NCBI GenBank assembly: GCA_003008705.1
Contig: PDUO01000002.1
Span: forward strand, 1,320,898 to 1,384,897
Length of the DNA stretch: 64,000 nucleotides
DNA from: Pezicula radicicola
Taxonomy: Eukaryota > Ascomycota > Leotiomycetes > Helotiales > Dermateaceae
Direction: 5' to 3'
Below, in pieces: positions 44,061 through 59,978 of this stretch. Each line of letters begins with the position of its first letter. Position 1 is the first letter of the stretch. A program made the position numbers and the translations under genes. The notes beneath the pieces are model-generated. The model worked only from the letters and a program-made list of their open reading frames with translations. It was not told where the DNA came from and did no database searches.

Positions 44061-45226
44061 TCAGCTCGAGAGTTCTAATAAATTCCTCTTCTGTTGTTGC
44101 CCGTTTACTTTGTTGATCTCTCCTTCATAATTATCGCCGGCACACCTCTCTCGTTCTAACTTCATTGGCATGATCATGCTCATCTCTGGGCAGTATTCGA
44201 AGATCTTTTTTCTCTGAGCCTGGCTCTTCCAAACGCCGTCCGCGAGATTCTCGCCCCCATTGCGCGCATGGTATCCCATTGGCTTCTCATGCCAGACGTC
44301 CTCTACGGAGAAATGCTGCTGCTCTTCAGCATTGGCAACTACTGCTCCCGGAAGCACTGTGATACGCTTTCCAAACCATTCATCTTCTGCTTCGGTATTG
44401 TTGTATCTAGACTGGAACCCGAGGATTCTTCTTACTGCTGAGATTCGTCGGAATGAGAGGCCACCGTTGCCTGCAAAATGGTCCCTCGCAGTTCTGCGCC
44501 GCATTAGCATTTATCCCACAAATCTAGCGCGTCCGGATAACTAACCTGGGAGCTCCAGCCCAGCTGTAATGCATCCAGTCATTCAAACTGTCCTGAGAAT
44601 TGGCACACATGATGCTATCCGACTCATACTTCAATAACCATTCCACACCTGGCAGGAAGTTATCATAGAACCGAATATCGGTCAAGGTTCTAAAGACATC
44701 TTCCTTGCTATCAATTGACCACGGTTGTGGCAGAACCAGCAAATCCAGCTTCCCGTTTGCAATCTGATATTGTGTGGCGAAACTGCGCTGAACACTTAAC
44801 ACACTCTTGTTCGTCCCGATAAACAGAAATCGCCAGTCCGGAGGCACGACAGAGATCATATGTAAGATCTGCGGCACGAGATGTGGAATTGGTCGTCCTT
44901 CGATGAGGAGGGCTACTTTCGAGGAGTTAAACTGTTCTCGCGGATCGTGGCTTGGATACCAGTCAACCTTGATGGAAGGTATATGTTCGGTCACATCGTT
45001 CACTTTGTCTTTCGCATAGGCTTTAATCGTAGGTTTGTATGAAGGTAGTAGAGATGCAAAGGTCCATCTATGTTGATGTCAGCATCTGCTGATCTCCTCC
45101 AACACGCTGTGCTTCGTGCGATGCAGATACTCACGTTAGTATTAGAGAGACGACTATCAGGATTCTCGTCTTGTTGATCACAAGCAATGCGCTCATTGAG
45201 CTGGGTCCAGTATGTACCGTAGACAT
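44061..45226 (-). CDS. DUF5672 family putative glycosyltransferase A, type II membrane protein
   Basis: Exons on the minus strand are 45226..45135, 45067..44546 and 44493..44061 (introns 67 and 52 nt), giving 348 residues. Exon 1 supplies the hydrophobic N-terminal anchor ('ALLVINKTRILIVVSLILTW'), so the protein probably faces the Golgi lumen. The DUF5672 domain shows 'KVALLIEGRPIPHLVPQILH', 'SVVPPDWRFLFIGT', an acidic motif 'ESDSIMCANS' (a plausible metal/nucleotide-binding DxD equivalent), 'DHFAGNGGLSFRRI', 'EDEWFGKR' and 'FSVEDVWHEKPMGYHARNG'. DUF5672 has no proven activity that I know of; the motifs and context suggest a GT-A-like transferase. Head-to-head with RgpF-like 2. A GTACCGTA word overlaps the region just after the start codon. 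Confidence 0.82.
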
Positions 45227-46650
45227 GGTGATCTGGCTTCGCGGACCTCTGCCTTAGACTCTAGAGTCGTGGTCGTAGGGCACTCGAAGCTATCCCCAAG
45301 TCTTGGCCCCTACTCAATAAAAGATGAAGCTCTTGATAATTTCAGCAAGCGAGTCCAAGTGTCCGTCCTATCTCTTCACGGGGCGGTGCATGACGGAAAC
45401 AAAAAGAAGGCCTGAATTAGCAGTAGGTAGTATGAGGAGAAGAGTGCGCGGTCCAGCGACACAGTCAGCAGTCAGTAGTTTCGTGGAGAGATGAGCCAAA
45501 GTAAAGTCAAAGTCAATGGTGGTATTGGCATGCGATCGGTACGGCGGTATGCAAGGCCAGAAGCCTGAAGCCTAGAAGTTCGTTCACTTTTACTTTTTGC
45601 AGTTTAGGTACTGTACCGTAGATGTGGCGGGCGAAATCCGGAAATCCGAAGAGGTCCTAGTAGGCACACCTCTCTGGCTGGCTGTGTTGCAGGTAAACGA
45701 AACACACCTCAGATCCCTGCCTGCATCCAGGGCCCCCTCGCAACAAAAATGGGGACACTTACGAAAGCTTGTTTGTCACTCCTGGACCACTTCAAAGTAG
45801 GCTGGGCTGACTTGCTAAAGCGGCGTGGGAACCGGTGGGGTGGGGTTGATTAAATATGCCTTGGATGCGTAACACTGCAATGATTTTAAGGTTTTGGTAT
45901 GTGTAAGTACAGTATGCTTGATTTACAGTAAGGATTTCTTGACTCGTCGCCACCCCTGCATTATTTTATAATATGGGCACATTTTAACCATTAAGAATTC
46001 ATAAATTCAATAATTTGGATCCCGTTAGCCTTTTGTCTATCTCCAGACGTGTCTTCCCTAATATGCACTAATATGCTCTAGGTGCAGTGGTTAATTAAGC
46101 CAGCCTAACCACTGATATTAATGCTATTCCTGAATGCAGGAGTTGATATCGATTTGACTATTCCATAGGATCATACATATATCAGAAGGCTGAAAACGGA
46201 ATAAGCCAGAACCAGAAGTAAGGACGCTCTCAGGTATTCTTTCCTTCTCGTAGTTCGTCCTAGTCCGGCGCGCCTAGCTCATGTAGTAAGTATCGTCATT
46301 CCATTCCAAAAGCAAGTCCCGAGGCAAGACAGAGGCAAGACATATCACACAGCTAGCCGCAAGGTGACTGGTGGTGACAGCCAAATAGCCACGCTCGCCA
46401 CGTAAGGTTATCAGAAAAACGGTGGGGCATGACGAACATATCCCACTTTCCCAGGAGGGAGTATCCCTTCCATATATCTTTCAATTGTGGCTTGAGTTGA
46501 GCGCCGTTTGCATATCTGAAGCTAAAGAATGCGTTTTTCGAAATGGAATTACTGGAATTACCCTCATTCCGTGGCTTGGAGAGGAAAGGAAAGGACTGGA
46601 ACTCTATTGACTAGCTCTTTTCTGTTTTGGGTTTCTGTTTTCTTTTGACT
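45227..46650. promoter_or_regulatory. Divergent intergenic region between DUF5672-A and RgpF-like 2
   Basis: 1.4 kb between two divergent starts; expected to hold both promoters. Contains GTACTGTACCGTA at 45608 (the recurring motif) and AGTACAGTAT near 45907. AT-rich around 45960-46120. No gene seen. Confidence 0.55.
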
Positions 46651-58508: not shown

Positions 58509-59978
58509 ATGACAGGAAAGCACGCCAACGGAGGCCCTCCCAGTAAGCCTATTCTACCCAATCTTGACCCAATTGATTAGCTTGGGACTAATATGGACCG
58601 TGCAGCTCCAGCATCGACCAACGGAGAGCAAAATAAGTTCTTCGAGGATTTCGGTATATGGAAGGAAGCGCCTATCCTGACTGGAAGTACGAAATTCACC
58701 CCAATACCAGATGTCAAGAATATTATGATCACAGGTGGAGCAGGATTTATGTGAGAGCTTGCACAGTCCCATCTGCGAAGTATGCACTAATAAGAACAGT
58801 GCCTGCTGGTTTGTGAGACATTTAACCTTAACGTACCCTGATGCATACAACATCGTGTCTTTCGATAAGCTCGACTACTGCGCATCCCTAAACAATACTC
58901 GAGTGTTGAACGACAAGAGAAACTTTAGCTTCTACCATGGTGACATCACCAATCCCTCCGAGGTTATGGACTGCTTGCAGAGGCACAACATCGACACGAT
59001 CTTCCATTTCGCAGCACAATCGCATGTTGATTTGAGTTTCGGAAACTCATATGCATTTACACACACAAACGTATACGGAACACACGTCCTACTGGAAAGT
59101 GCGAAGAAGGTTGGAATTAAGAAATTCATTCACATATCAACAGATGAGGTGTATGGAGAGGTCAAGGACGACGAGGACGATCTGTTAGAGACAAGCATTT
59201 TGGCACCCACGAACCCATACGCGGCAAGCAAGGCAGCAGCGGAGATGTTAGTTCACTCGTACCAGAAAAGTTTCAAGTTGCCAGTAATCATTGTGCGAAG
59301 TAACAATGTTTACGGTCCTCATCAATTCCCAGAGAGTAAGTTGAAGATTCGTTCTATACAACACCCATCGCTAACAGACGACCAGAAATCATACCAAAAT
59401 TCAGCTGCTTGTTGAACCGAGGCCAGCCTGTAGTCTTGCACGGTGATGGAACCCCAACGAGACGATATCTCTTTGCTGGAGATGCAGCTGATGCATTCGA
59501 TACAATTCTTCATAAAGGTACAATGGGCCAGATTTACAATGTAGGATCTTATGATGAGATCTCCAACTTAACACTGTGCTCGAAACTCCTCACGTACCTC
59601 AACATCCCGCACGAGACACAAGAGGAGTTACACAAGTGGGTAAAACACACCCATGATCGTCCCTTTAACGATCACCGATACGCAGTTGACGGCACGAAAC
59701 TTCGTCAACTCGGCTGGGACCAGAAGACTAGCTTCGAGGAAGGAATGGCTATCACCGTTGACTGGTACAAGCGCTTTGGAGAGCAATGGTGGGGTGATAT
59801 TTCGAAGGTTCTAACACCGTTCCCAACTGTTGCAGGAACAGAAGTTGTGGCCGACACGAACGAGCCAATTGAGGAGATTCGGGAAGAGATGCTGGTTGAC
59901 AACCACGATAACATGACGCTGAACAAGAAGCGGAAAATTGATGATGGGACGAGTGTAGGGACAGCAGTTGCGGTATAA
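58509..59978 (+). CDS. UDP-glucose 4,6-dehydratase (RmlB/RHM N-domain-like)
   Basis: This enzyme type converts UDP-glucose to UDP-4-keto-6-deoxyglucose with bound NAD+, the first step to UDP-rhamnose; fungal enzymes of this type are known in Magnaporthe and Botrytis. Exons are 58509..58542, 58606..58750, 58800..59335 and 59386..59978, giving 435 residues. The NAD motif 'ITGGAGFIA' is rebuilt across intron 2. Catalytic Thr174-Asp175-Glu176 lie in 'HISTDEVYGE', and Tyr200/Lys204 in 'NPYAASKAAAE'. Other motifs are 'FHFAAQSHVDLSFGNSYAFT', 'VRSNNVYGPHQFPEKIIPKF' and 'RRYLFAGDAADAF'. The C-terminal 50 residues are extra, acidic then basic (LNKKRKIDD). The N-terminal 40 residues also extend beyond bacterial RmlB. 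The 3,5-epimerase/4-reductase partner is absent from this window. Confidence 0.92.

What the first reader, a model, noticed from the sequence alone, without database searches (positions are those of the whole stretch)
44061..59978. Candidate fungal deoxysugar (rhamnose-type) glycan gene cluster
Six adjacent genes make a coherent route: UDP-glucose 4,6-dehydratase makes the 6-deoxysugar nucleotide, a TPT/SLC35E3-like transporter could move it to the Golgi, and one RgpF-like and three DUF5672 type II membrane proteins could transfer it. No unrelated gene interrupts the block from 44.06 to 59.98 kb. RgpF resemblance (a rhamnan-synthesis protein in bacteria) fits a rhamnose donor. Fungal UDP-rhamnose synthesis is known, but I know of no described gene cluster coupling it to DUF5672 and RgpF-like proteins.
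Basis: partly seen in the sequence, partly recalled or inferred. Interest (0 to 1): 0.88.

Follow-up and report, generated by a model that had tools for sequence, protein, structure and literature searches.

The report
Fungal rhamnose-donor and transferase gene neighbourhood
In a mould genome, a gene predicted to start the making of the activated sugar UDP-rhamnose sits beside a likely sugar transporter and four genes predicted to encode Golgi sugar-adding enzymes, and parts of this neighbourhood recur in related fungi, so it offers candidates for the little-known enzymes that may attach rhamnose to fungal surfaces.

Summary
The six genes are real and were modelled exon by exon: three DUF5672 proteins, one RgpF-like protein, a TPT-type transporter and a nucleotide-sugar 4,6-dehydratase, the only close copy found in this 61-Mb genome. 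Predicted models of a Phlyctema RgpF-like homologue and of DUF5672-D match GT-A glycosyltransferases; the five transferase candidates have one N-terminal hydrophobic segment each. Gene tags and contig lengths in relatives show partial conservation: D and the dehydratase are linked in 4 of 5 Leotiomycetes but 0 of 5 Sordariomycetes that could be decided; an RgpF-like gene shares a 17.8-kb contig with the dehydratase in Colletotrichum caudatum. Corrections: the RgpF label falls below Pfam's cut-off; a second RgpF-like gene lies at 29.3 kb, outside the block, and the linked homologues resemble that one more; the second pathway enzyme lies on another contig, 0.8 kb from the only detected paralogue of this transporter. 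Against: seven of ten DUF5672 places found in the genome lie on other contigs, and no rhamnose transfer is shown. Best reading (0.5): a partly conserved UDP-rhamnose supply and Golgi transfer neighbourhood; main rival (0.33): inherited gene order with other sugar donors.

The parts
44061..45226 (-). Gene A: DUF5672 protein, 348 aa, 3 exons (45135-45226, 44546-45067, 44061-44493); predicted type II membrane glycosyltransferase
   Evidence: gene model; PF18922 93.9 bits; one N-terminal hydrophobic region
46651..48023 (+). Gene B: RgpF-like protein, 434 aa, 2 exons (46651-47526, 47595-48023); predicted type II GT-A-like glycosyltransferase
   Evidence: gene model; PF05045 only 14.3 bits (cut-off 25); fold inferred from the family model of a homologue; hydrophobic region
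48643..49846 (-). Gene C: DUF5672 protein, 381 aa, 2 exons (48948-49846, 48643-48889); predicted type II glycosyltransferase
   Evidence: gene model; PF18922 120.5 bits; hydrophobic region
51981..53293 (+). Gene D: DUF5672 protein, 418 aa, 2 exons (51981-52111, 52168-53293); predicted type II GT-A-like glycosyltransferase; linked to the dehydratase in 4 of 10 decidable relatives
   Evidence: gene model; PF18922 106 bits; exon-2 model; linkage
54942..56514 (-). Gene E: TPT-type membrane protein, 380 aa, 4 exons (56248-56514, 55566-56195, 55274-55464, 54942-54996); predicted nucleotide-sugar transporter
   Evidence: gene model; PF03151 27.6 bits (cut-off 30); 27% identity over 309 residues to a recalled plant URGT1 sequence
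58509..59978 (+). Gene F: UDP-glucose 4,6-dehydratase-like protein, 435 aa, 4 exons (58509-58542, 58606-58750, 58800-59335, 59386-59978)
   Evidence: gene model; PF16363 233.8 bits; best solved relative 6vlo; only close copy found in the genome; motifs
29292..30494 (+).
   Evidence: gene model; PF05045 13.8 bits; 43% identity to B; homologues on the same contig as D or the dehydratase in some relatives

Best explanation
[quoted passage not shown] Proposed route: F converts UDP-glucose to the 4-keto sugar (inferred from family; the Botrytis enzyme is shown to do this in print, PMC12488480 passages); a separate epimerase/reductase gene on contig C3 finishes UDP-L-rhamnose (inferred); transporter E, or its paralogue beside that gene, carries the donor into the Golgi (inferred); A, B, C, D and R, each with one N-terminal hydrophobic segment, build a rhamnose-bearing surface glycan (inferred; not all of them need use rhamnose).
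For: Genes intact. F has the dehydratase family and the STDEVYG and NPYAASK motifs, present in 120 of 120 listed homologues, and is the only close copy found in the genome. The second enzyme is present once at 50-61% identity to a recalled plant epimerase/reductase, and the only detected paralogue of E lies 0.8 kb from it on the same strand, so each of the two pathway genes has a member of this transporter pair as neighbour. The RgpF-like family model (a Phlyctema homologue, pLDDT 86.7) and the D exon-2 model (pLDDT 73.9) match GT-A glycosyltransferases. Linkage in relatives: D and F 4 of 10 decidable species (2 and 3 gene tags apart in Hymenoscyphus albidus and Stromatinia cepivora); RgpF-like and F on one contig in 3 of 8, one of them the 17.8-kb contig of Colletotrichum caudatum; D and RgpF-like on one contig in 7 of 17. 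A third RgpF-like gene of the genome lies 3 kb from a DUF5672 gene on contig C65.
Against: No activity, localisation or expression is shown. D and F lie on different contigs in 5 of 5 Sordariomycetes and in Diplocarpon rosae. Seven of 10 DUF5672 places are on other contigs; six of those had no RgpF-like, transporter or dehydratase homologue in the roughly 10 kb searched on each side. The C65 pair has no dehydratase or transporter homologue in the 30 kb fetched. TM-scores of the fold matches are low (mostly 0.25-0.55), and the RgpF-like model also matches nucleotidyltransferases such as GlmU with tied Z. The RgpF-like family has no DxD-type motif that I could identify as conserved. Fungal rhamnosyltransferases already described are GT-B (PMC9145935 passages); whether this genome has those was not searched.
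Confidence: 0.5

Rival explanations
1. Inherited order and local duplication: a group of Golgi glycosyltransferase genes happens to lie beside the dehydratase and a transporter, near relatives inherited that order, and the transferases use other donors such as UDP-galactose, UDP-glucose or GDP-mannose.
For: D and F are linked only among the Leotiomycetes of the lists, 0 of 5 in Sordariomycetes; housekeeping genes (Brix protein, PBD kinase, RING protein) lie between R and A; the fold matches are to enzymes of many donors.
Against: An RgpF-like gene shares a 17.8-kb contig with the dehydratase in Colletotrichum caudatum, a Sordariomycete; the epimerase/reductase gene has the E paralogue as neighbour; the RgpF-like and DUF5672 genes pair again on C65.
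Confidence: 0.33
2. Only D, E, F and R form the unit; A, B and C are neighbours by duplication with other tasks. This overlaps with the main reading.
For: The links seen in relatives concern D, F and RgpF-like genes that resemble R; 0 of 120 listed RgpF-like homologues score higher to B than to R.
Against: The RgpF-like list was drawn with R as query and cut at 120, which favours R; homologues of A, C and E were not searched in other fungi; the C65 pair joins a C-like DUF5672 to an R-like gene.
Confidence: 0.3
3. Gene E carries another nucleotide sugar (UDP-xylose, UDP-galactose or UDP-glucuronate) and its place beside F is incidental.
For: E is only 27% identical to the recalled plant transporter, and relatives of that kind carry several UDP-sugars (recalled; fungal UDP-xylose transporters exist, PMC5773217, search listing only).
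Against: E lies between D and F, and its only detected paralogue lies 0.8 kb from the epimerase/reductase gene. The chance of that pairing was not computed.
Confidence: 0.3
4. F mainly makes UDP-4-keto-6-deoxyglucose as an enzyme-rescue metabolite for UDP-xylose synthase, as reported for mammalian TGDS, and not as a rhamnose precursor.
For: The mammalian relative does this, and the Botrytis enzyme could replace it in human cells (PMC12488480, passages).
Against: This genome has an epimerase/reductase-like gene, and in Botrytis that enzyme is reported to turn the intermediate quickly into UDP-rhamnose (PMC5698552, abstract). Presence of a UDP-xylose synthase here was not searched.
Confidence: 0.05

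Closest known systems
Fungal UDP-rhamnose pathway of Botrytis and Verticillium (UDP-glucose 4,6-dehydratase and ER epimerase/reductase)
   Same: F is a dehydratase of the family that holds the fungal enzymes; one epimerase/reductase-like gene exists in the genome
   Different: Published work seen here treats the two enzymes; I saw no mention of neighbouring transferases or a transporter in the passages read
Sporothrix rhamnosyltransferases Rht1 and Rht2
   Same: Proposed task: transfer of rhamnose from UDP-rhamnose to fungal surface glycans or lipids (PMC9145935 passages, PMC13429783 abstract)
   Different: Those are described as GT-B; the proteins here model as GT-A and belong to other families
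DUF5672 (PF18922)
   Same: A, C and D pass the cut-off
   Different: The family has no described function; a GT-A-like fold and a link to a donor enzyme are leads from this work
Bacterial rhamnan synthesis protein F, RgpF (PF05045)
   Same: About 70 residues of B and R match weakly (14.3 and 13.8 bits)
   Different: Below the cut-off of 25, covering a seventh of the 503-position profile; a survey reported no RgpF homologues in 24 fungal proteomes (PMC5872309 passages)
Plant UDP-rhamnose/UDP-galactose transporters (URGT; recalled)
   Same: E aligns with a recalled URGT1 sequence over 309 residues at 27% identity, E 2e-30
   Different: Identity too low to fix the substrate; related transporters carry other UDP-sugars (recalled)
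Golgi type II GT-A transferases such as Kre2/Mnt1 and LARGE1
   Different: 7-9% sequence identity; donor and acceptor unknown

Membership tests
Fungal UDP-glucose 4,6-dehydratase | Dehydratase domain of the GDP-mannose/dTDP-glucose 4,6-dehydratase kind | tested here: met
   PF16363 233.8 bits; best solved match 6vlo, E 1.1e-83
Fungal UDP-glucose 4,6-dehydratase | Catalytic TDE and YxxxK motifs | tested here: met
   TDEVYG at residue 174 and YAASK at 200; roles recalled
Fungal UDP-glucose 4,6-dehydratase | Acts on UDP-glucose | not testable with these tools
   Shown for the Botrytis enzyme in print (PMC12488480 passages); not for this one
DUF5672 (PF18922) | Score above the curated cut-off of 24.4 bits | tested here: met
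   A 93.9, C 120.5, D 106 bits
RgpF (PF05045) | Score above the curated cut-off of 25 bits | tested here: not met
   B 14.3, R 13.8 bits; no match in the genome searched exon by exon
GT-A glycosyltransferases | GT-A fold, RgpF-like family | tested here: met
GT-A glycosyltransferases | GT-A fold, DUF5672 | tested here: met
GT-A glycosyltransferases | DxD-type metal/nucleotide motif | tested here: inconclusive
   D family keeps QxDS in 120 of 120 listed homologues, which may stand in its place; in the RgpF-like list some DxD occurs in 91 of 120 but was not shown to align
GT-A glycosyltransferases | Glycosyl transfer from a nucleotide sugar | not testable with these tools
   Needs an enzyme assay
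TPT / SLC35 nucleotide-sugar transporters | TPT domain above the curated cut-off of 30 bits | tested here: not met
   27.6 bits over nearly the whole profile; EamA also below its cut-off
TPT / SLC35 nucleotide-sugar transporters | Full-length similarity to a known UDP-sugar transporter and many membrane segments | tested here: met
   27% over 309 residues to recalled URGT1, E 2e-30; several hydrophobic segments
Conserved gene cluster | Same genes linked in relatives | tested here: inconclusive
   D-F 4 of 10, RgpF-like-F 3 of 8, D-RgpF-like 7 of 17 species share a contig or tag run; A, B, C and E not tested
Conserved gene cluster | Co-expression | not testable with these tools
   No expression data on hand

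The most novel reading that the evidence does not exclude
DUF5672 type D and the fungal RgpF-like family are two undescribed families of Golgi GT-A rhamnosyltransferases, encoded together with their donor enzyme and donor transporter: the missing secretory-pathway half of fungal rhamnose biology, separate from the GT-B enzymes Rht1 and Rht2.
Probability: 0.33. Interest if true: 0.78.

Novelty: new variant of a known kind. Interest (0 to 1): 0.6.

Why it matters
UDP-rhamnose enzymes are known in fungi, and loss of the second one reduces plant infection by Botrytis and Verticillium (PMC5698552, introduction). The enzymes that attach rhamnose are little known: a 2017 survey says none had been characterised in fungi (PMC5872309, passages) and a 2022 paper calls its two GT-B enzymes the first (PMC9145935, passages). 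A neighbourhood that ties the donor enzyme to two unnamed GT-A-like families and a transporter gives a short, testable candidate list and a first functional lead for DUF5672, a word that one full-text search found in a single paper, on a bacterial secretion system by its title.

Tried and rejected
Rejected: RgpF homology as the argument for rhamnose. Rejected: the RmlD-type hit on C87:997 kb as the second enzyme; by eye it looks like the methionine adenosyltransferase beta subunit (recalled), and it did not appear among the matches to the plant epimerase/reductase, which found only the C3 gene.

Led nowhere: solved structures by sequence for the RgpF-like alignment, 3 matches with E 0.086 or worse; for E, 2 matches with E 0.28; bacterial DUF5672 loci, 44 pattern matches, none confirmed; an alignment too diverse to search with; plasmids, no match for C. 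Pfam on 10 ORFs, one or two beside each of the seven DUF5672 places outside the block: UbiD, amino-acid permease, a bZIP below cut-off, Mif2, ThiF, and 5 of 10 without a family; no sugar gene among them, but the rest of each 20 kb was not scanned.

Papers: PMC5698552 abstract, outline and introduction; PMC12488480, PMC9145935 and PMC5872309 passages; PMC12295706 abstract, outline and passages; PMC13429783 abstract and outline; PMC5773217 and the DUF5672 paper as search listings. That I found no such gene neighbourhood in print rests in an open-access library; the 2012 paper on the fungal enzymes was not held.
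Full report
What is there. The window is part of a 61-Mb assembly in 152 contigs. The closest named homologues of D are from Phlyctema and Coleophoma (77-79% identity) and of F from Stromatinia (88%), so it is a Leotiomycete. I rebuilt the six genes with GT...AG introns. A, C and D are DUF5672 proteins, F a nucleotide-sugar 4,6-dehydratase, E a TPT-type transporter just under its cut-off, B an RgpF-like protein well under its cut-off. Between R and A lie a Brix-domain protein, a glycyl-tRNA synthetase (by eye; the piece tested gave no Pfam hit), a PBD-domain kinase and a RING protein.

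More than chance? One search finds 10 DUF5672 places in the genome (a lower bound), three of them here within 9.3 kb; uniform placement gave that in 1 of 200,000 trials. A, C and D are 29-39% identical to each other, so a recent tandem duplication is unlikely, an old one possible. The RgpF-like search finds three genes: B, R, and one on contig C65 about 3 kb from a DUF5672 gene that is 43% identical to C, with a bZIP-like frame between. The other six DUF5672 places had no RgpF-like, transporter or dehydratase homologue in the roughly 10 kb fetched on each side (one side of C89 has only about 7.5 kb of contig). As controls in the family searches, PF18922 was found in 1 of 14 named genomes (a Bacteroides), PF05045 in 2 of 14, PF04321 in 14 of 14.

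Relatives. No fungal genome could be searched for gene order, but the protein lists give gene tags and contig lengths. Only the best 120 of 721, 414 and 7985 matches are listed, so absence from a list means nothing; the contig length given is the longest of a cluster of similar proteins, so a mismatch is weaker evidence than a match, and fragmented assemblies can hide linkage. D and F, species named in both lists: linked in 4 of 10: Stromatinia cepivora (tags 006675 and 006678), Hymenoscyphus albidus (00007029 and 00007031), Lachnellula cervina (same 45,675-base contig), Chlorociboria aeruginascens (same 137,101-base contig); different contigs: Diplocarpon rosae, Pseudomassariella, Zalerion, Neopestalotiopsis clavispora, Monosporascus ibericus, Pestalotiopsis NC0098. 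Neoarthrinium was dropped because its two records come from different assemblies. RgpF-like and F on one contig in 3 of 8: Lachnellula occidentalis (76,120 bases; a second copy there is on another contig), Colletotrichum caudatum (17,846 bases), Xylariales AK1849 (3.3 Mb, distance unknown); not: D. rosae, Xylariomycetidae FL2044, Plectosphaerella plurivora, Podospora didyma, Cercophora LCS_1. D and RgpF-like on one contig in 7 of 17: Phlyctema (4 tags apart), Coleophoma crateriformis (16) and cylindrospora (17), Tricladium, Mollisia, Thozetella (distances unknown), Ciborinia (215 tags apart, so not close); not: Calycina, D. rosae, D. coronariae, two Drepanopeziza, L. arida, Rhynchosporium secalis, Acephala, Xylariales PMI_506, Apiospora phragmitis. 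All 120 listed RgpF-like proteins are closer to R than to B, as the query was R.

Pathway. F has the catalytic motifs of its family (roles recalled), and the other matches in the genome are weak (30-32% identity, E 3e-7 and 2e-6). The second enzyme is not in the block: a recalled plant epimerase/reductase finds one gene on C3 in two pieces at 61% and 50% identity. The only detected paralogue of E (39% identity) lies on the same strand with matched ends 0.8 kb away. So both UDP-rhamnose genes found here have a member of one small transporter pair as neighbour; beyond the block itself this is the best hint that E carries UDP-rhamnose. Its chance was not computed, since the TPT gene count could not be obtained (listed under Tried and rejected).

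Reading. I judge a rhamnose-donor and Golgi-transferase neighbourhood the best explanation (0.5), with only part of it necessarily tied to rhamnose; inherited order with other donors is the main rival (0.33). The rivals that only D, E, F and R belong together, and that E carries another sugar, overlap with these. Shown: gene content, family scores, predicted folds, linkage in some relatives and not in others. Inferred: every activity, the compartment and the donor.

Novelty. Fungal UDP-rhamnose synthesis is known, and two GT-B rhamnosyltransferases are described in Sporothrix (PMC9145935 passages, PMC13429783 abstract); a 2025 paper finds putative relatives of them in 351 species (PMC12295706 abstract), so rhamnose transfer in this fungus need not depend on the genes described here, and I did not search this genome for those two. 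My searches found no paper on fungal DUF5672, none on RgpF-like proteins in ascomycetes except a report of their absence from 24 proteomes, and no such gene neighbourhood in the listings seen, in an open-access library only.

Noticed in passing
G000:C3:991251-993763 (L048): The only epimerase/reductase-like gene found lies 0.8 kb from the only detected paralogue of transporter E, same strand.
   Followed up: yes
G000:C65:320.6-325.6 kb (L033): A second DUF5672 and RgpF-like pair, with a bZIP-like frame between them, far from any dehydratase in the 30 kb fetched.
   Followed up: partly
58509-59978 (gene F): The glycine-rich motif reads GGAGFIA; 112 of 120 listed fungal homologues share that alanine and 0 of 120 read GGAGFIG.
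   Followed up: partly
61996-62757 and right flank L049:718-1785: A methyltransferase-like frame and, beyond the window, an MFS transporter frame follow the dehydratase; whether they belong to the neighbourhood is unknown.
   Followed up: no
window, family search control: DUF5672 was found in 1 of 14 named control genomes, a Bacteroides, so the family also exists in bacteria; its bacterial neighbours could not be reached.
   Followed up: partly
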